From the NCBI GenBank assembly GCA_947504045.1, contig CANNFY010000002.1, forward strand, positions 372,001 through 436,000: DNA of 64,000 nucleotides. The letters are read 5' to 3'. Below, piece by piece: positions 1,132 to 10,616 of this stretch. The position numbers were made by a program, and so were the translations under genes. Under the pieces are notes generated by a model that saw only the letters and a program-made list of their open reading frames with translations, was not told the origin of the DNA and made no database searches. Origin of the DNA: an uncultured Maribacter sp. (GTDB lineage Bacteria > Bacteroidota > Bacteroidia > Flavobacteriales > Flavobacteriaceae). Position 1 is the first letter of the stretch. Each line of letters opens with the position of its first letter.

Positions 1132-2382
1132 TTATACCAGGTATTGAAAAAGGTCTGGCTTGTTATTTAAATACTCACCAAAGAAATTATTTTCTTTCAT
1201 TCTTACTATTAAAGGCTCTAAATCCGCAGGGCTTTTTAACTCTATTCCTACTACTGCAGGTGCGTTTTCTTTACTAGATTTTTTAGAGTATTCAAAGTGT
1301 GTAATATCGTCTGTAGGGCCTAAAATTTCAGTAACAAATTCTTTTAAAGCTCCTGGCCTTTGCGGAAAACGAACCATAAAATAGTGTTTTAACTGTCCGT
1401 ACAATAAAGCTCTTTCTTTTATTTCTGCAGTACGTGTAATATCGTTATTACTACCACTAATTATACAGACTACGTTTTTACCTTCTATTTCTTTTTTAAA
1501 ATAGTCTAAAGCTGTTATTGTTAAAGCTCCTGCTGGTTCAACAACTACAGCATCTCTATTATATAAATCTAAAATGGTTTGGCACACTTTACCTTCTGGT
1601 ACCGTTTGTATTTTATATAAATTATTTTTACAAACATTAAAAGTAAGATCACCAACTCTTTTTACAGCTGCGCCATCAATAAATTTATCTATAGTTTGTA
1701 ATGTAGTATTTTCTCCATTAGTAATAGAGGTTTTCATGGAGGGTGCTCCTTCTGGCTCTACTCCTATTATTTTAGTATTTGGAGAAAGTGATTTTATTAC
1801 TCCTAAAATTCCAGAAGCAAGTCCGCCTCCGCCAATGGGAACAAAAATATAATCTATAGGGCTTTTAGTTTGCTCTAAAATTTCTAATCCAACGGTTCCT
1901 TGTCCTTCTATAATTTTAGGGTCATCAAAAGGGTGAACAAAAGTTTTATTGTTTGTATCGCAAAAGGTTTTTGCTGCATTAAAGGAGTCATCAAAAGTAT
2001 CTCCTTCTAAAATTATTGTAACCCAATTTTCTCCAAACATTTTAGTTTGCTCAACTTTTTGCTTGGGAGTTACTGCAGGCATAAAAATAGTACCTTTTAT
2101 TCCTAAGTGTTTACATGCATATGCAACACCTTGTGCATGATTACCTGCACTAGCACAAACTACTCCTTTTTTTCTTTCATCAGAAGAAAGGGAACTTATT
2201 TTATTATATGCACCTCTTATTTTATAAGAGCGCACTCTTTGCAAATCTTCTCTTTTTAAAAGAATATTGGCATTGTATTTTTTAGCAAGTCGTAAACTAA
2301 AAGAAAGCGGCGTAACATCAACTACTTGTTGAATGTTATTCGCCGCTTTTTTAATATTCTCAATTGTTGGGAAGTACGTCAT
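1132..2382 (-). CDS. ilvA: Threonine ammonia-lyase (threonine dehydratase), biosynthetic
   Basis: PLP enzyme that deaminates L-threonine to 2-oxobutanoate, the first committed step to isoleucine. 416 aa. The N-terminal PLP domain carries the Schiff-base lysine in VRSYKIRGAYN, the asparagine loop SAGNHAQG and the phosphate-binding glycine loop GGGGLASG. The last ~90 residues (from about 330, LKHYFMVRFPQRPGALKEF) form one ACT-like regulatory domain, so this is the shorter form and not the two-ACT E. coli form. It is the last gene of the ilvDBNCA operon, 44 bp after ilvC. Its place with isoleucine genes supports a biosynthetic rather than catabolic role. Confidence 0.93.
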   Translation of the reverse strand: MTYFPTIENIKKAANNIQQVVDVTPLSFSLRLAKKYNANILLKREDLQRVRSYKIRGAYNKISSLSSDERKKGVVCASAGNHAQGVAYACKHLGIKGTIFMPAVTPKQKVEQTKMFGENWVTIILEGDTFDDSFNAAKTFCDTNNKTFVHPFDDPKIIEGQGTVGLEILEQTKSPIDYIFVPIGGGGLASGILGVIKSLSPNTKIIGVEPEGAPSMKTSITNGENTTLQTIDKFIDGAAVKRVGDLTFNVCKNNLYKIQTVPEGKVCQTILDLYNRDAVVVEPAGALTITALDYFKKEIEGKNVVCIISGSNNDITRTAEIKERALLYGQLKHYFMVRFPQRPGALKEFVTEILGPTDDITHFEYSKKSSKENAPAVVGIELKSPADLEPLIVRMKENNFFGEYLNNKPDLFQYLV

Positions 2383-2426
2383 AGGTTTTGTACTCCCTTA
2401 AGTTCTCCCAAGGGAGGGAAATTTAA

Positions 2427-3899
2427 TTATACAATTGGTTTCATTGCTGTCATAGAAGCTCTTAATCTTGCACCAACTATTTCAACTGGGTGCTCTCTTA
2501 AAATCTTATTAACTTCAATTAATTTAGCATTATCTACTCCATTATCATCATTAGCTAAACCTTTACCAATAATATCTGTATCAACATTTTTCATAAAATC
2601 TGTTAATAACGGCTTACAAGCATGGTCAAATAAATAACAACCGTATTCTGCAGTATCTGAAATTACTCTATTCATTTCAAATAATTTTTTTCTTGCGATA
2701 GTATTTGCAATTAACGGAGTTTCGTGTAAAGACTCGTAATAAGCAGACTCATCTATAATACCAGAATCTGTCATAGCTTCAAAAGCTAACTCTACACCAG
2801 CTCTTACCATTGCTACCATTAAGATACCATTATCATAAAATTCTTGCTCAGAAATTTCAACATCACCAGCAGGAGTTTTTTCAAAAGCAGTTTCTCCAGT
2901 TGCAGCTCTCCATCCTAATAAGTTTTTATCATCATTAGCCCAGTCTTCCATCATTGTTTTAGAAAACTCACCTTCCATAATATCATCCATATGTTTTTGG
3001 AATAATGGACGCATAATATCTTTTAACTCTTCTGATAATTCAAAAGCTTTTATTTTTGCTGGGTTAGATAAACGATCCATCATATTAGTAATTCCACCAT
3101 ATTTAAGACCTTCTGTAACAGTTTCCCATCCGTACTGAATAAGTTTAGAAGCATACCCTGCATCTATTCCTTTTTCAATCATTTTATCAAAACAAAGAAT
3201 AGAACCTGTTTGTAACAAACCACATAAAATAGTTTGCTCTCCCATTAAATCTGACTTTACTTCCGCTACAAAAGAAGATTCTAAAACTCCTGCTCTATCT
3301 CCACCTGTACCAACAGCATAAGCTTTAGCTTCTGCTAAACCTTTTCCTTGAGGGTCATTTTCTGGGTGAACTGCAATTAAAGTTGGCACACCAAATCCTC
3401 TTTTATATTCTTCTCTTACTTCAGAACCAGGACTTTTAGGCGCTACCATAATTACAGTAAGATCTTCTCTTACTTGCATACCTTCTTCTACAATGTTAAA
3501 ACCGTGAGAATATGATAATGTAGCTCCTTTTTTCATTAAAGGCATAACCGCACTTACCACAGCTGTATGTTGCTTATCTGGTGTAAGGTTAATTAACAAA
3601 TCTGCTGTTGGTATTAATTCTTCATACGTACCAACTGTAAATCCATTTTCAGAAGCGTTTTTAAAAGACTGTCTTTTTTCTTTTATAGCTGCATCTCTAA
3701 GTGTATAAGAAACATCTAAACCAGAGTCTCTCATGTTTAATCCTTGATTAAGACCTTGAGCTCCACAACCAACAATTACTATTTTCTTTCCTTTTAAAGC
3801 CGATACACCATCGGAGAATTCTGTAGAATCCATAAATCTACATTTCCCTAATTGGGTAAGTTTATCTCTTAAAGATAGTGTATTAAAATAATTTGCCAT
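2427..3899 (-). CDS. ilvC: Ketol-acid reductoisomerase (class II, long form)
   Basis: NADPH- and Mg-dependent enzyme that isomerises and reduces 2-acetolactate or 2-aceto-2-hydroxybutanoate to the dihydroxy acids of valine/leucine and isoleucine synthesis. At 490 aa it is the long class II form with a duplicated C-terminal knotted domain, like E. coli IlvC, rather than the ~330-aa class I form. A Rossmann motif [10 protein letters not shown] is at about residue 44. Metal-binding acidic residues typical of the knotted domain are in [11 protein letters not shown] and in the repeated [22 protein letters not shown] stretch. It is fourth in the ilv operon, 29 bp after ilvN. Confidence 0.95.
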
Positions 3900-3928
3900 T
3901 TTACTTTCTTATTTTGAATTTAGATTAT

Positions 3929-4456
3929 TTAATTTTCTTGTAATTTATTTAATATAGATGATATATCCATTTGTTCTTTAGAAACAGAAATACGCCCAGA
4001 ACGTACAAATTGCATTATACCAAATGGTTTTAATTGGTCATGCATTTCTTCAATCTCACTTCTTCTTCCTGTTTTAGCAAGTACAAAAAACTCTCTTGCA
4101 ACAGTAACAATCTGAGAATTACTCTCTTTAATTATATTTTGTATTTGACGTTCATCAAACAATAAATCTGATTTTATTTTAAATAAAGCAGATTCTTGAA
4201 AAATAGTTTCTTCATCGGTATGATAAAAAGCTTTAATAACTTCTATCTGCTTTTCTATTTGTCCAACAAGTTTTCTAGCTGTTTCTTCGGTTATATAACA
4301 TACTATTGTAAACTTAGAAACATCATCAATCTCTGATTTAGAGACATTTAAACTTACTACGTTTATATGTCTTTTTAAAAATATACCAGATATTCTATTT
4401 AACAAACCTACGTTATTCTCTGAGTATACTGAAATCGTAAATCTTTCTTTTTCCAT
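3929..4456 (-). CDS. ilvN: Acetolactate synthase small (regulatory) subunit
   Basis: Regulatory subunit that activates the IlvB catalytic subunit and usually gives valine feedback control. 175 aa, close to the usual 160-175. An ACT domain opens the protein (FTISVYSENNVGLLNRISGIF, glycine-leucine turn for amino acid binding). A second ferredoxin-like C-terminal domain includes IVTVAREFFVLAKTGRRSE. It lies 23 bp after ilvB in the same operon. The symbol ilvN or ilvH is a matter of convention. Confidence 0.92.
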   Translation of the reverse strand: MEKERFTISVYSENNVGLLNRISGIFLKRHINVVSLNVSKSEIDDVSKFTIVCYITEETARKLVGQIEKQIEVIKAFYHTDEETIFQESALFKIKSDLLFDERQIQNIIKESNSQIVTVAREFFVLAKTGRRSEIEEMHDQLKPFGIMQFVRSGRISVSKEQMDISSILNKLQEN

Positions 4457-4479
4457 GACTTCTTTTCTCTAAATCTTAA

Positions 4480-6213
4480 TTATTTTAATCTAACATCTGA
4501 AACCGATGCACCAGATGGTATCATTGGAAAAACGTTATCTTCTTGTTCTACTCTTACTTCTAAGAAATATGGATCTTTAGATGCCATCATTTCTTCTATA
4601 GCTCCTTTTAAATCTTTTCTTTCGGATACTCTATTTGCTTTAATATGATATCCTTCCGCAATTTTTACAAAATCAGGATTTGTCATTATAGTTGATGCAT
4701 ATCTTCTATCAAAGAACAATTCTTGCCATTGTCTTACCATTCCTAAATGCTCATTATTAAGCACTACAATTTTTACTGGAATATTGTGTTGAAAAATAAC
4801 ACCTAGTTCTTGAATAGTCATTTGGTATCCACCGTCTCCAATAATTGCAACTACCTCACGTTCCATTGCTCCCATTTTAGCTCCTATAGCAGCTGGCAAA
4901 GCAAAGCCCATGGTTCCTAAACCACCTGAAGTAACATTACTTTTGGTTTGTTTAAATTTAGCATATCTACAAGCAAACATTTGGTGTTGCCCAACATCAG
5001 AAACTATTACCGCTTTATTTTCTGAAGCTATATTAATTTCTTTCATTACCTCTCCCATTGTTAACCCTGGTTTAGTAGGATTCAACTGTGGATTAATAAT
5101 TTGCTCTTCTTCTATTTTATGCTTCTTCTTAAACTCGTTATGCCATTCTTCGTGACTATTTTTATTAATTTTTGGTAAAATTAATTCTAAAGTCTCTTTT
5201 GAGTTTCCTAAAACTGCAATATCGGACATTACATTTTTATTAATCTCAGCAGGGTCAATTTCAAAATGAATGACTTTTGCTTGTTTAGCATATGTGTCTA
5301 AGCTTCCTGTTACACGATCATCAAAACGCATTCCTATTGCAATTAACAGATCACACTCGTTTGTTAAAACATTTGGCCCATAATTACCATGCATACCTAC
5401 CATACCAACATTTAACGGGTGGTCAGAGTCTAAGGCAGACAAACCTAATATTGTCCATGCAGCAGGTATACCAGCTTTTTCTATTAAAGCCTTTAATTGT
5501 TCTTCTGCTTCACCTAAAATTACACCTTGACCAAAAACTATAAATGGTTTTTTTGCATTATTAATTAATGTAGCTGCAGCATCTATAGCAGACATATCTG
5601 GTTTAGGAACCGGATCATAACTACGAACTAGATTGCATGGTTCATAAGAAAATTCAATTTCTTCAAATTGTGCATTTTTTGTAATATCAACCAATACTGG
5701 CCCTGGTCTTCCTGAACGCGCTATATAAAAAGCTTTTGCTAATATTTCTGGTATTTCACTAGCTTTTGTTACTTGGTAATTCCATTTAGTTACTGGTGTA
5801 GAAATACCAATAATATCTGTTTCTTGAAAAGCATCTGAACCTAATAAATGTCTAGGCACTTGTCCTGTAATACAGACCATTGGTGTAGAATCTATTTGTG
5901 CATCGGCAATACCAGTAACAAGGTTTGTTGCTCCTGGTCCGGAGGTAGCCATAGCTACTCCTACTTTACCCGTAACTCTTGCATACCCTTGAGCTGCATG
6001 TGTAGCCCCTTGCTCATGACGTGTTAATATATGTGTTAATTTATCTTGAAATTTATATAGTTCGTCATAGACAGGCATTATTGCTCCTCCAGGATAACCG
6101 TATAATAAATCTACTCCTTCTGCTATTAGGCAATGTATAATAGCCTCTGCTCCACTTATTTTCATTGTGGTCTGCTTTTTAGTTTCTGTTTTATTTGCTT
6201 TCAATGTTTCCAT
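4480..6213 (-). CDS. ilvB: Acetolactate synthase large (catalytic) subunit, biosynthetic type
   Basis: TPP-, Mg- and FAD-dependent enzyme that condenses pyruvate with pyruvate or 2-oxobutanoate. 577 aa. Three domains can be followed: an N-terminal PYR domain with the TPP-activating glutamate in HEQGATHAAQGYARVTG, a central FAD-binding domain, and a C-terminal PP domain with the TPP motif GDGGYQMTIQEL through IVVLNNEHLGMVRQWQELFF. The N-terminus METLKANKTETKKQ is an untypical extension; an internal Met at MKISGAEAII (residue 17) is an equally good start. It is the second operon gene, 64 bp downstream of ilvD. Confidence 0.95.
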   Translation of the reverse strand: METLKANKTETKKQTTMKISGAEAIIHCLIAEGVDLLYGYPGGAIMPVYDELYKFQDKLTHILTRHEQGATHAAQGYARVTGKVGVAMATSGPGATNLVTGIADAQIDSTPMVCITGQVPRHLLGSDAFQETDIIGISTPVTKWNYQVTKASEIPEILAKAFYIARSGRPGPVLVDITKNAQFEEIEFSYEPCNLVRSYDPVPKPDMSAIDAAATLINNAKKPFIVFGQGVILGEAEEQLKALIEKAGIPAAWTILGLSALDSDHPLNVGMVGMHGNYGPNVLTNECDLLIAIGMRFDDRVTGSLDTYAKQAKVIHFEIDPAEINKNVMSDIAVLGNSKETLELILPKINKNSHEEWHNEFKKKHKIEEEQIINPQLNPTKPGLTMGEVMKEINIASENKAVIVSDVGQHQMFACRYAKFKQTKSNVTSGGLGTMGFALPAAIGAKMGAMEREVVAIIGDGGYQMTIQELGVIFQHNIPVKIVVLNNEHLGMVRQWQELFFDRRYASTIMTNPDFVKIAEGYHIKANRVSERKDLKGAIEEMMASKDPYFLEVRVEQEDNVFPMIPSGASVSDVRLK

Positions 6214-6277: not shown

Positions 6278-7954
6278 TTAAAACTCGTCTGTTACACATC
6301 CTTCTGAAGCAGAAGAAACCGAACGAGCATACTTGTATAATACTCCTTTTTTAAATTTTAAATCTGGCTGTACCCAAGCTTCTTTTCTTTTTACTAATTC
6401 TTCATCAGAAACATCTACAGTAATTGAGTTTGTTTCTGCATCAATAGTAATAATATCGCCATCTTTTACTAATGCAATAGTACCACCTTCTTGTGCTTCT
6501 GGAGAAATATGACCAACCACAAAACCGTGTGTACCACCAGAAAAACGTCCGTCTGTAATTAGTGCCACATCTTTTCCTAAGCCTGCTCCCATAATAGCTG
6601 CTGTAGGTTTTAGCATTTCTGGCATTCCTGGTCCACCTTTAGGTCCTTCGTATCTAATAACTACGACATCTCCTTTTTTAACCAGACCGTTTTTAATACC
6701 ATCATTTGCAGCATACTCCCCATTAAATACTTTTGCGGTTCCTTTAAAAAGCAGTCCTTCTTTACCTGTTATTTTTGCTACAGAACCGTTTTTAGCTAAG
6801 TTTCCGTATAACATACGTAAATGCCCTGTTCTTTTAATAGGGTTTTCTAATGGCTTTATAACATCTTGCCCTTCGGTTAAATCTGGGGCATCTGCTAAAT
6901 TTTCTGCCAACGTTTTTCCTGTAACAGTTAAACAATCGCCATGTAATAAACCATTGTTTAATAAGTACTTTAATACCGCAGGTATTCCTCCTACTCTGTG
7001 CACATCTTCCATTAAATATTTACCACTTGGTTTTAAATCTGCGATAAATGGTGTTGTGTCACTAATTTTTTGAAAATCTTCTAATGTAAATTTAATATCT
7101 GCAGCTCTTGCAATTGCTAAGAAGTGTAATACTGCATTTGTTGAACCTCCCATTATTGTAACAAGACGAATAGCATTTTCTAATGATTTTCGTGTTACAA
7201 TATCTAAAGGTTTAATATCTTTTTCTAATAATATTTTTATAGCTTGACCCGCAGCTATTGAACCTTTTTTCTTTTCATCACCTTCTGCAGGGTTTGATGA
7301 ATTGTATGGTAATGCCATTCCTAAAGCTTCAATTGCAGAAGCCATAGTATTAGCAGTATACATACCTCCACAAGCTCCTGCACCTGGACAAGCTTTTTCA
7401 ATTACATTTTGGTATTCTTTATCATCTATACTACCAGCTACTTTAGCTCCCCACGCTTCAAAAGCAGAAACAACATCTAACTTTTTACCGCCATGAAGAC
7501 CAGAAGCTATGGTACCACCATAAACCAAAATTGCCGGACGATTTAAACGTAACATTGCCATAAGAGCTCCTGGCATATTTTTATCACATCCAACTACAGT
7601 AATTAATCCGTCATAAGACATTGCCTGTACAACAGTTTCCATTGAGTCTGCAATAACGTCTCTAGAAGGTAATGAAAAACGCATTCCTGGTGTACCCATA
7701 GAAATACCATCACTTACTCCAATAGTATTAAATATTAACCCAACAACGTCTTTATTAATGGTACCTTCTTTTACAAGTTTTGCCAAATCATTTAAATGCA
7801 TATTACAAGGGTTACCCTCATAACCTGTACTTGCTATTCCTACTAAAGGTTTTTCAAAATCTTCTTTTGTTAAACCTATAGCATGCAACATTGCTTGTGC
7901 TGCTGGCTGTGTATCATCTTGAGTAACGTTTTTACTGAACTTATTTAATTTCAT
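6278..7954 (-). CDS. ilvD: Dihydroxy-acid dehydratase
   Basis: Iron-sulfur enzyme that dehydrates 2,3-dihydroxy acids to the 2-oxo acids of valine and isoleucine. 558 aa, the usual length. Cluster cysteines are in [22 protein letters not shown] and [12 protein letters not shown], which matches the bacterial IlvD family. It is the first structural gene of the ilv operon. About 320 nt of leader RNA separate its ATG from a 15-codon leader ORF and terminator hairpin (separate entries), so its expression probably depends on attenuation. Confidence 0.95.
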
Positions 7955-8157
7955 TTATACTATTCTTTCAATTTTATATACTATTATGGTACTCTTAACT
8001 AATCAAATATAATTCTTTACTAGAACCATTTTATTTTAAACTTTTTTTTGGTTCAAATTCAAGTCTATTCAATTTTAATTAATTTACTTAAAATCAAATA
8101 ATTAACATATACTTTTATATCATATTCAATAGTTTTTACTTCTACTTTTTATTTAAT

Positions 8158-8198
8158 AAAGAGGCCTGTATCAGATAAAATATGATACAGGCCTCTTT
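8158..8198 (-). terminator. Perfect 16-bp terminator hairpin, proposed ilv attenuator terminator (also ends the pxp transcript)
   Basis: The arms are AAAGAGGCCTGTATCA and TGATACAGGCCTCTTT with a 9-nt AT-rich loop, a perfect 16-bp stem. Read on the minus strand it follows the leader ORF and precedes ilvD by about 200 nt. The 3' arm ends in TTT followed by ATTAAATAAAAAG, a modest U tract. The first arm can instead pair with an upstream segment (8211-8219), giving an antiterminator. It also stands 110 nt after the pxpC stop, so it could simply terminate the pxpABC transcript; the two roles are compatible. Confidence 0.8.
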
Positions 8199-8224
8199 AC
8201 TTATAGAATACTATATCATCTCTT

Positions 8225-8272
8225 TTAAGAGACAATACTATAGACACTAAATATTGTTAATTTAATTTTCAT
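8225..8272 (-). CDS. ilv operon leader peptide (attenuation), MKIKLTIFSVYSIVS
   Basis: A 15-codon ORF starting at ATG 8272 and ending at TAA 8225-8227. It encodes three Ile, two Val and one Leu, with Ile-Val just before the end. Immediately downstream on the minus strand lies a small hairpin (TCTCTT/AAGAGA), then a segment able to pair with the terminator arm, then the perfect terminator stem, then ilvD. This order of leader ORF, 1:2 hairpin, antiterminator and terminator is the classical plan for attenuation of branched-chain amino acid operons. It is too short for the ORF track. No ribosome binding site helps, as is normal in this phylum. Translation itself is inferred. Confidence 0.65.
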   Translation of the reverse strand: MKIKLTIFSVYSIVS

Positions 8273-8309
8273 TCATCAATATTAATAATTTTTTTTTAAC
8301 TATTACAAA

Positions 8310-9149
8310 CTATAACAACTTTAAAATTACATTATCTCCAAATTTCTTTTGCGCCAATACACTAATTGCCTTATCTGTTAATTGTAAAACCCTTGGATAA
8401 CCCCCAGTAGTTTGACCATCTTTCATAAGTATAATTAATTTACCTGATGGAGTTAATTGTATTGTTCCTGGAAGTGTTGCTGATGTTAACATAGAATAGC
8501 TTAAACCTTCTATAGTTTCTTGAAGCTGGTAAGCCATTCTATCATATTGATTAGAAACTGAAAATAATGTAGTAAACAACCCTTTTATCTGATTTTTATT
8601 TAATAAATTATATTCAGGTCCTTTTGCTACTTCTAATACATTAGTATTTAATAGCGAATTGATTTTTAAATGAGATATTTTAGGATTAAAATCTTTACAT
8701 TCTACATAACCTATTTCATCGGAATTTTTAAAGCACCTTTTATTTGTTATTGGAAAGTAAAAGGAAGCACTATTTAATACCATATTAGATTTAAAACCAC
8801 CTTTAATTGCCAAATAAGCTCTTAATCCTTTATTGAGCTTAGCATAAGACAATACATCGCCACTTTTAACCTTATACACTTTATACAAAGAAATAGGGCT
8901 GGTGTTTAAGGTTACCAAAAACTCTGCTCCTCCTATACAAATGTAGGAATCTGCAGTAAATTCTAAAGTAGGTCCTGTCATTGTAATTTCAATAACTGGT
9001 GCACTTATATTATTTTCTAATAACGCATTTATAACTTTAGTGCTATACGTATCCATACTACCAGACACAGGAACTCCTTTGTCTTTATACCCAAACCTTC
9101 CTTGGTCTTGCAGTGTTGTAAAAAAACCTTGCTTTAATACTTTAAGCAT
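8310..9149 (-). CDS. pxpC: 5-oxoprolinase subunit C (biotin-dependent carboxyltransferase-like, KipA family)
   Basis: Subunit of the ATP-dependent prokaryotic 5-oxoprolinase PxpABC, which opens pyroglutamate to glutamate. 279 aa, slightly short against ~300 for the family. It opens with the typical LKQGFFTTLQDQGRFGYKDKG and has PVSGSMD near residue 29, the KipA signature. The C-terminus holds QTTGGYPRVLQLT. It overlaps pxpB by 8 nt (9142-9149), which suggests translational coupling. It is the last gene of the pxpA-pxpB-pxpC set. Confidence 0.88.
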   Translation of the reverse strand: MLKVLKQGFFTTLQDQGRFGYKDKGVPVSGSMDTYSTKVINALLENNISAPVIEITMTGPTLEFTADSYICIGGAEFLVTLNTSPISLYKVYKVKSGDVLSYAKLNKGLRAYLAIKGGFKSNMVLNSASFYFPITNKRCFKNSDEIGYVECKDFNPKISHLKINSLLNTNVLEVAKGPEYNLLNKNQIKGLFTTLFSVSNQYDRMAYQLQETIEGLSYSMLTSATLPGTIQLTPSGKLIILMKDGQTTGGYPRVLQLTDKAISVLAQKKFGDNVILKLL

Positions 9150-9882
9150 TTATTTTATTTTTTTGAATCGTATAAACCCCTGCTTCATTTTCTATAACAC
9201 ATAAATCGTATTCCGCTTTTTCTATTGCAAAAAACTCTACTTTATCTCCTACGGAAACAAATACTGGTTTATCTACATCAGGATTAAACATAGTTACTGG
9301 GCAATTTCCTATTATATTCCAACCTCCTGGAGATTCTTGCGGATAAATTCCTGTTTGCTTACCTGCAATACCAACCGATCCTTTAATTACTTTTAACCGC
9401 GGAGACTCTCTCCTATTTATTTCTAAACTTGCAGATAGTCCTCCTAAGTACATAAAACCTGGCAAAAAACCGATACCATAAATCGTATATGATTTTTTAG
9501 TATGCATTAAAATTACTTCTTCTACAGTTGTATTAAGCTTATTTGCCACTTCTTCTATATCTATAGCAAATTCTTTATCGTAACAAACTGGAAGTCTCCA
9601 CAAATAAGATTCTCTTGTAACCTTAATTAAGTTTCTTTCTGCATACCACTTATTTAAATTAAATTTTAACACATTAAAGTGTATCGGAAAATTTCTTTCA
9701 ACTAAGGTTAAAGAATTATAAGAGGCAATTATTTCCCATTTTTCTGGAAATAAATATTTTGCAGATAAATAAGCTTTAAATTGCAGAATATCTTCTAAAA
9801 TAGCTTCTTCTACCCTATTTGGCCATTCTATTAAAATTGCATGTTGACCAAATGGCCTTATAGATATAGTATAGTCAGACAC
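9142..9882 (-). CDS. pxpB: 5-oxoprolinase subunit B (KipI family)
   Basis: Second subunit of 5-oxoprolinase. The ORF track begins at 9963, but the first 27 residues (MCSWRYGFRIR...) lie inside pxpA in another frame and do not look like the family. I place the start at GTG 9882 (V-SDYTISIRPFGQHAILIEW), 2 nt after the pxpA stop, giving 246 aa. KipI-type motifs are IYGIGFLPGFMYLGGL and SVGIAGKQTGIYPQESPGGWNIIG, which fit the family well. The tight spacing on both sides fits a pxpABC operon. Confidence 0.88.
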   Translation of the reverse strand: MSDYTISIRPFGQHAILIEWPNRVEEAILEDILQFKAYLSAKYLFPEKWEIIASYNSLTLVERNFPIHFNVLKFNLNKWYAERNLIKVTRESYLWRLPVCYDKEFAIDIEEVANKLNTTVEEVILMHTKKSYTIYGIGFLPGFMYLGGLSASLEINRRESPRLKVIKGSVGIAGKQTGIYPQESPGGWNIIGNCPVTMFNPDVDKPVFVSVGDKVEFFAIEKAEYDLCVIENEAGVYTIQKNKINA

Positions 9883-9884
9883 TC

Positions 9885-10616
9885 TTATATATTTAGTTTT
9901 GGTAATTCTACAGAAAGATAGGCTAAAATATCTAATGCGGAAACCGTATCTCCATGAACACAAAAAGTATTTGCTTTTATTGGGACTAAAACACCAGAAA
10001 CAGTTCTTACTTTTTCTTGTTTTACCATTATTTTTATATGTTCTAAAACTTTTTTGGGGTTTTCTATTAACGCTTTATTAGATTTTCTAGAAACCAAACT
10101 TAAATCTTCTTCATAATTCCGATCAGCAAAAGCCTCATAAAACACCTTAAAACCTTGTTTTTTTGCCTCCTTTGCTATTATTGAGCCATATGGCGCATAT
10201 AACAATGTTTTTTCTTTAAAAGCTTCTATACATTTTAAAAATAAAACAGCAAGCTTATGGTTTTTAGCCAAATCGTTATACAATGCACCATGAGGTTTTA
10301 TATGGTGTAAGTTTATTTTTTTCTGAGACAGTATAGCAACAAAAAAATTAATTTGCTCTTTTATAGTATTAACAAAAGACTCTTCTGACATTTGTATTGA
10401 TACTCTTCCAAAATTATCTTTATCTGGATACGATGGGTGTACTCCAATATCAACACCATGTTGAATGGCTAAATTAATAGTATCTTTTATAGTATTTTCT
10501 GTTCCAAAATGACCTCCACAAGCAATACTACAAGAAGAAATATAAGGAAACAATACCTCCTCTGTAACAACACCTTCTCCTACATCGCAATTAATATCTA
10601 TAATTACCTTACTCAT
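9885..10616 (-). CDS. pxpA: 5-oxoprolinase subunit A (LamB/YcsF family)
   Basis: Third subunit of the pyroglutamate-hydrolysing complex. 243 aa, the usual length. The LamB/YcsF signature is clear: IDINCDVGEG at the N-terminus, SCSIACGGHFG, VDIGVHPSYPD and HIKPHGALYND. It is the first gene of the minus-strand pxpABC set and divergent from the gene at 10804. Pyroglutamate arises spontaneously from glutamine and in peptide turnover, so this is a salvage and detoxification function. Confidence 0.9.
   Translation of the reverse strand: MSKVIIDINCDVGEGVVTEEVLFPYISSCSIACGGHFGTENTIKDTINLAIQHGVDIGVHPSYPDKDNFGRVSIQMSEESFVNTIKEQINFFVAILSQKKINLHHIKPHGALYNDLAKNHKLAVLFLKCIEAFKEKTLLYAPYGSIIAKEAKKQGFKVFYEAFADRNYEEDLSLVSRKSNKALIENPKKVLEHIKIMVKQEKVRTVSGVLVPIKANTFCVHGDTVSALDILAYLSVELPKLNI

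What the first reader, a model, noticed from the sequence alone, without database searches (positions are those of the whole stretch)
8158..8272. Complete attenuator with Ile/Val leader peptide before ilvDBNCA
Seen in sequence: a 15-codon ORF (MKIKLTIFSVYSIVS) with Ile-Val near its end; a 1:2 hairpin TCTCTT/AAGAGA overlapping its last codons (8219-8232); a segment ATGATATAG (8211-8219, minus strand) that pairs over nine bases with CTGTATCAT of the first terminator arm (8182-8190); and a perfect 16-bp terminator stem before ilvD. Known: ribosome stalling in such leaders lets region 2 pair with 3 and prevents termination. Inference: starvation for Ile/Val opens the operon. Attenuators by leader peptide are far less documented in Flavobacteriia than in Proteobacteria.
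Basis: partly seen in the sequence, partly recalled or inferred. Interest (0 to 1): 0.7.

Follow-up and report, generated by a model that had tools for sequence, protein, structure and literature searches.

The report
Ile/Val leader-peptide attenuator before ilvDBNCA
Just ahead of the isoleucine/valine synthesis genes of this marine flavobacterium lies a textbook RNA switch, in which a ribosome reading a tiny Ile/Val-containing peptide decides whether transcription goes on; the same switch stands before ilvD in dozens of related genera, but the genes probably also have a second promoter that bypasses it.

Summary
The interpretation passes the conservation tests. Of 192 ilvD upstream regions, 86 carry 97 attenuators with Ile/Val-rich leaders. 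The 1:2 and terminator stems covary; region 2 pairs best with its own region 3 (-10.1 vs -6.4 kcal/mol swapped, p=8e-15). Ile/Val codons are almost absent within 11 nt of region 2 but make up 50-85% of codons 12-32 nt before it, and the stop codon sits at region 2: the footprint geometry that classic attenuation needs. The same genome has a His leader before hisG and a Trp leader before trpE. Refinements: the predicted transcript starts at the leader ATG (leaderless; 19 of 23 relatives of this type agree). A conserved second promoter (8011-8004) lies between terminator and ilvD, so part of expression probably escapes attenuation. The window's copy is a weak exemplar (interrupted U-tract, few Ile/Val codons). 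Eleven relatives have tandem attenuators. Leader-peptide attenuation in Flavobacterium was already proposed in 2021: a new member of a known kind. No transcript data were available.

The parts
8277..8284 (-). Predicted promoter P1, -7 box TAATATTG (consensus TAnnTTTG, one mismatch); with the box at -12..-5 the predicted start site is 8272, the A of the leader ATG (leaderless)
   Evidence: box 3-5 nt before the leader ATG in 21 of 86 loci against 0.7 +/- 0.8 in shuffles (max 4 in 300); in 19 of 23 single CTGTATC-type loci. Box position -12..-5 from PMC9723704.
8225..8272 (-). Leader peptide ORF MKIKLTIFSVYSIVS*, candidate control codons Val10 (8245), Ile13 (8236), Val14 (8233)
   Evidence: orthologous leaders in relatives are Ile/Val rich; window Ile13/Val14 lie 17 and 14 nt before region 2, inside the conserved 12-41 nt zone.
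8215..8236 (-). 1:2 (anti-antiterminator) stem ATTGTCTC/GAGATGAT, stop codon in and next to its loop
   Evidence: 97.9% of cells paired over 24 loci, 4 of 8 pairs with compensatory double changes.
8211..8219 (-). Region 2, ATGATATAG, pairs with region 3 (antiterminator)
   Evidence: 92.6% of cells paired; RNA from 8222 to 8182 folds into the 2:3 stem (-10.5 kcal/mol).
8182..8190 (-). Region 3, CTGTATCAT, within the 5' arm of the terminator
8158..8198 (-). Intrinsic terminator (3:4), 16-bp perfect stem, interrupted U-tract
   Evidence: stem conserved with 5 compensated pairs; U-tract in the window weaker than in relatives.
8004..8129 (-). Second promoter module P2 between terminator and ilvD: block A TTGAATATGATA (8129-8118), block C TTGAATTTGAACC (from 8062), -7 box TATATTTG (8011-8004; predicted start 7999, 45-nt 5' UTR)
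   Evidence: strict box 20-90 nt before ilvD in 50 of 115 loci (8.2 +/- 2.8 expected); block A to box distance 117 or 118 in all 31 loci that have both; at most one copy per genome of the genus.
6278..7954 (-). ilvD, dihydroxy-acid dehydratase, first gene of the operon
   Evidence: TIGR00110 above cut-off
1132..6213 (-). ilvB (6213-4480), ilvN (4456-3929, by position and first-reader label only), ilvC (3899-2427), ilvA (2382-1132)
   Evidence: TIGR00118, NF003557/TIGR00465, TIGR02079 above cut-off; the small subunit gave no NCBIfam match at 1e-30.

Best explanation
This is a ribosome-mediated (leader-peptide) transcription attenuator sensing charged Ile- and Val-tRNA and controlling read-through into ilvDBNCA. 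RNA polymerase starts at P1, at the A of the leader ATG. With enough Ile and Val the ribosome runs to the stop codon at 8227-8225 and covers region 2 (8219-8211); region 3 then pairs with region 4 and transcription ends near 8158. When Ile- or Val-tRNA runs short the ribosome stalls at Val10, Ile13 or Val14, disrupts the 1:2 stem but leaves region 2 free, region 2 pairs with region 3, the terminator cannot form and polymerase reads on into the operon. Without translation the 1:2 stem forms and termination is the default. A second promoter (P2) downstream of the terminator probably supplies attenuation-independent transcription. Shown here: sequence, conservation, compensatory pairing, codon/footprint geometry. 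Inferred: start sites, stalling, termination, P2 activity.
For: Leader ORF conserved with Ile/Val at 44% of codons in frame against 10% and 6% in the other two frames (n=97). Ile/Val fraction by distance to region 2: at most 0.08 at 0-11 nt, 0.51 at 12-14, 0.60-0.85 at 15-32, below 0.12 beyond 54; stop codon median 2 nt from region 2 (n=82). 1:2 and 3:4 stems: 98.4% of cells paired, 25 double-change cells against 6.3 in shuffles, slid controls 37-51% paired. Native 2:3 duplex -10.1 against -6.4 (swapped) and -5.1 (shuffled) kcal/mol, Wilcoxon p=8e-15, n=97. Persists with different upstream genes: pxpC lies upstream in only 19 of 86 loci. Same genome: MRNKTTHHHFHTGYQAR + terminator before hisG, MKNLKLNTWWWNNLRKTS + terminator before trpE. 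Operon makes Ile and Val.
Against: No transcript, ribosome-profiling or reporter data. In the window species the U-tract is interrupted and the leader holds only five Ile/Val codons. Within the CTGTATC type, region 3 is invariant, so 2:3 shows no covariation there; the 2:3 support comes from comparison between types. The 1:2 and 2:3 stems are only partly exclusive in the minimum-energy fold of 8236-8182. P2 may carry much of the expression. The leader set was chosen on I/V/L content, so the overall I/V enrichment is partly circular; the footprint boundary at 12 nt was not selected for.
Confidence: 0.92

Rival explanations
1. The hairpin is only the terminator of the upstream co-directional pxpABC (5-oxoprolinase) operon; the short ORF and alternative pairing are coincidental.
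For: pxpC stops at 8310, 37 nt before the leader ATG, same strand, so the hairpin would also end pxpABC transcripts.
Against: No pxpC was found upstream in 67 of 86 attenuator loci; leader codons, geometry and compensatory 1:2 changes are unexplained by a plain terminator; P1 box conserved.
Confidence: 0.03
2. The attenuator is real in relatives but decayed or nearly inactive in this species; ilvDBNCA is driven mainly from P2.
For: Interrupted U-tract, no terminator call; leader in the lowest fifth for I/V; perfect P2 box in the window with the conserved array.
Against: All stems, the stop position, P1 box and the two control codons next to region 2 are intact; terminator stem is a perfect 16 bp.
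Confidence: 0.15
3. A leader-peptide element that acts otherwise (Rho-dependent or translational control, or a trans-acting peptide) rather than by intrinsic-terminator attenuation.
For: Streptomyces ilvB has a similar-looking leader whose codon changes had no effect (PMC1262725).
Against: Terminator stem with U-rich tail conserved in the family; the terminator lies about 200 nt before ilvD, too far to sequester its start; region 2 is placed at the footprint boundary.
Confidence: 0.05

Closest known systems
Corynebacterium glutamicum ilvBNC attenuator (leader MTIIRLVVVTARRLP)
   Same: Ile/Val/Leu leader peptide, three alternative hairpins, transcription start one nucleotide from the leader ATG, further internal promoters (PMC11857589)
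   Different: Different phylum, no sequence relation apparent, first gene ilvB not ilvD, no ilvD/ilvA in the operon.
Leader-peptide attenuation proposed upstream of amino-acid operons of Flavobacterium psychrophilum
   Same: Same family of bacteria, same proposed mechanism (PMC9723704)
   Different: The main text gives no operon-by-operon anatomy, covariation or geometry test; its supplement could not be read here.
Escherichia coli ilvGMEDA / ilvBN leader attenuators (from general knowledge)
   Same: 1:2, 2:3, 3:4 logic with Ile/Val/Leu control codons
   Different: Longer leaders with Shine-Dalgarno sites; here leaderless or near-leaderless and few Leu codons (6%).
Mycobacterium tuberculosis ilvB1NC attenuator
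   Same: BCAA-rich uORF, terminator/antiterminator switch in front of ilv genes (PMC13236596)
   Different: Different phylum and sequence; supported there by SEnd-seq and reporter evidence.
Salmonella mgtCBR tandem attenuators
   Same: Two short ORFs in one leader, as in 11 relatives here (PMC3641672)
   Different: Not a biosynthetic amino-acid operon; the flavobacterial pairs both code for Ile/Val.

Membership tests
Ribosome-mediated (leader-peptide) transcription attenuator | Short ORF with codons for the end product, upstream of the biosynthetic operon | tested here: met
Ribosome-mediated (leader-peptide) transcription attenuator | Intrinsic terminator between leader and first gene | tested here: met
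   Perfect 16-bp stem conserved with compensatory changes; U-tract of the window weak and missed by the consensus scan
Ribosome-mediated (leader-peptide) transcription attenuator | Mutually exclusive antiterminator (2:3) and protector (1:2) stems | tested here: met
   exclusivity in the window only partial in the minimum-energy fold
Ribosome-mediated (leader-peptide) transcription attenuator | Control codons placed so that a stalled ribosome frees region 2 and one at the stop covers it | tested here: met
   (n=82), window values
Ribosome-mediated (leader-peptide) transcription attenuator | Starvation-dependent read-through | not testable with these tools
   Needs RNA data or reporters
Leaderless mRNA | Transcription start at or within a few nt of the start codon | tested here: inconclusive
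   Predicted from the -7 box position in 19 of 23 loci; no mapped start site
Rfam families (T-box, Leu/His/Trp leaders and others) | Covariance-model match at the gathering score | tested here: not met
   only a tRNA in the window

The most novel reading that the evidence does not exclude
Bacteroidota use a family-wide, independently evolved set of leaderless or near-leaderless Ile/Val attenuators before ilvD, in some genera two of the same specificity in series, combined with an attenuation-free second promoter under a rigid 118-nt DNA control array.
Probability: 0.5. Interest if true: 0.6.

Novelty: new member of a known kind. Interest (0 to 1): 0.45.

Why it matters
It shows with quantitative comparative evidence that classic leader-peptide attenuation governs Ile/Val synthesis across Flavobacteriaceae and some relatives, bacteria that lack Shine-Dalgarno initiation, and it gives a ready codon-resolution system: the Ile/Val boundary 12 nt before region 2 reads out the ribosome footprint from genomes alone. 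The leaderless start, the tandem copies and the downstream promoter make directly testable predictions about how such switches evolve and how much of the operon they control.

Tried and rejected
Rfam search gave no regulatory RNA. The first automatic detector missed the window's own terminator because of its interrupted U-tract; a relaxed threshold was used for that locus only. Within-type covariation of 2:3 was looked for and is absent, since region 3 must pair with both 2 and 4; it was replaced by the swap test. False-positive leaders (L024, L077, L158, L182, one each in L091 and L190) were removed by eye before the statistics. No leader/terminator was found before the aspartokinase genes (L214-L216) and no Leu leader recognised before leu genes (L211); not pursued. 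The plain pxpABC-terminator idea was considered and rejected. Literature on an Lrp-type site at flavobacterial ilv promoters: none found.

Full report
What is there. On the minus strand, between the stop of pxpC (8310) and ilvD (ATG at 7954), lie a 15-codon ORF (8272-8225, MKIKLTIFSVYSIVS), a stem overlapping its end (8236-8215), a segment ATGATATAG (8219-8211) complementary over nine bases to CTGTATCAT (8190-8182), and a 16-bp perfect stem-loop (within 8198-8158) with a short, interrupted U-tract. The stretch folds 8.7 standard deviations better than shuffles. The five genes downstream are ilvD, ilvB, ilvN, ilvC, ilvA; four of them are above curated cut-offs, ilvN rests on position and label.

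Conservation. I collected ilvD loci from genome contigs, the genus and one genome per genus of the family: 192 distinct upstream regions. A mechanical search for a terminator preceded by a short I/V/L-containing ORF, cleaned by eye, left 97 attenuators in 86 loci. They reach beyond the family (for example loci labelled Saprospiraceae, Chitinophagaceae and an Ignavibacteriae MAG). Same-genus leaders read MKINNFLINVIIIIPCRG, MKTNLVLSNVIVLIPCLG, MKVKSILINVIVIVSSQR, MKIIKTIVSINIIVP: the window's copy is one of the poorer ones.

Structure. In 24 aligned CTGTATC-type loci the 1:2 and 3:4 stems are 98.4% paired, nine pairs show changes on both sides, 25 double-change cells against 6.3 in shuffles, and sliding the partners by one to three columns drops pairing to 37-51%; RNAalifold independently returns the same two stems. 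The 2:3 stem is 92.6% paired but region 3 does not vary there. Across types region 3 does vary (CTGTATC, CCTTCC, CCTCCC, CCATTC, CCGTTC and others) and region 2 follows: own-partner duplexes average -10.1 kcal/mol, partners swapped between types -6.4, shuffled -5.1, p = 8e-15.

Geometry. For 82 attenuators with a clear region 2, Ile/Val codons are nearly absent within 11 nt upstream of region 2, jump to half at 12-14 nt and to 60-85% at 15-32 nt, and fade beyond about 42 nt; the stop codon lies a median of 2 nt from region 2. This is what the classic model demands if a ribosome covers about 12 nt ahead of its A-site codon: stalled on an Ile/Val codon it leaves region 2 free and breaks stem 1:2; at the stop codon it covers region 2. 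In the window Ile13 and Val14 sit 17 and 14 nt before region 2 and the stop 8 nt.

Same device elsewhere in the genome. Upstream of hisG: MRNKTTHHHFHTGYQAR and a terminator; upstream of trpE: MKNLKLNTWWWNNLRKTS and a terminator. So this organism appears to use leader-peptide attenuation for several amino acids.

Start sites (predicted). The flavobacterial -7 box TAnnTTTG sits at -12 to -5 (PMC9723704). A TAnnNTTG box ends 3-5 nt before the leader ATG in 21 of 86 loci (0.7 expected) and in 19 of 23 single loci of the window's type, putting the start at the ATG or within a nucleotide of it. Leaderless mRNAs are only 5.5% in F. psychrophilum; C. glutamicum ilvBNC has the same arrangement.

Second promoter. 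A strict TAnnTTTG box lies 20-90 nt before ilvD in 50 of 115 loci (8.2 expected). In 31 loci it follows TTGAATATGATA-type block A at exactly 117 or 118 nt although mean pairwise identity of the stretch is 55%. These include 13 loci in which the detector found no attenuator (one of them, L091, does carry one with a GTG-started leader that the detector missed). In six of eight genomes of the genus the strict pattern matches exactly once; the window's match is the one before ilvD. In the window the box is 8011-8004. So the attenuator controls P1 transcripts, and P2 probably provides the rest. This is inference from motif conservation.

Verdict. It is a new member of a known kind, already suspected in flavobacteria (PMC9723704); the leaderless start, tandem copies and P2 module are the fresh parts.

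Noticed in passing
L012, L034, L099, L115, L120, L123, L129, L147, L162, L010, L030 (upstream of ilvD): Two complete Ile/Val attenuators in series; the second leader ATG lies 9-22 nt after the first terminator and has no promoter box of its own. In nine of the eleven the downstream copy is of the CTGTATC type. L142 and L168 look the same by eye.
   Followed up: partly
window 8129-8004 (-) and 30 related loci: Rigidly spaced promoter module: block A TTGAATATGATA, a TGA-N3-TCA dyad, TTGAATTTAAACC and a TAnnTTTG box, 117-118 nt from A to box; at most one match per genome in the genus; looks like an array of protein-binding sites.
   Followed up: partly
L210 about 700-810 and L213 (minus strand) about 290-170: His-rich (HHHFH) and Trp-rich (WWW) leader peptides with terminators before hisG and trpE in the same genome, also with a promoter-like box about 7 nt before the leader ATG.
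   Followed up: partly
window 8310-10616 (-): pxpABC-like 5-oxoprolinase genes directly upstream; linked to the CTGTATC-type attenuator in 18 of 32 such loci.
   Followed up: no
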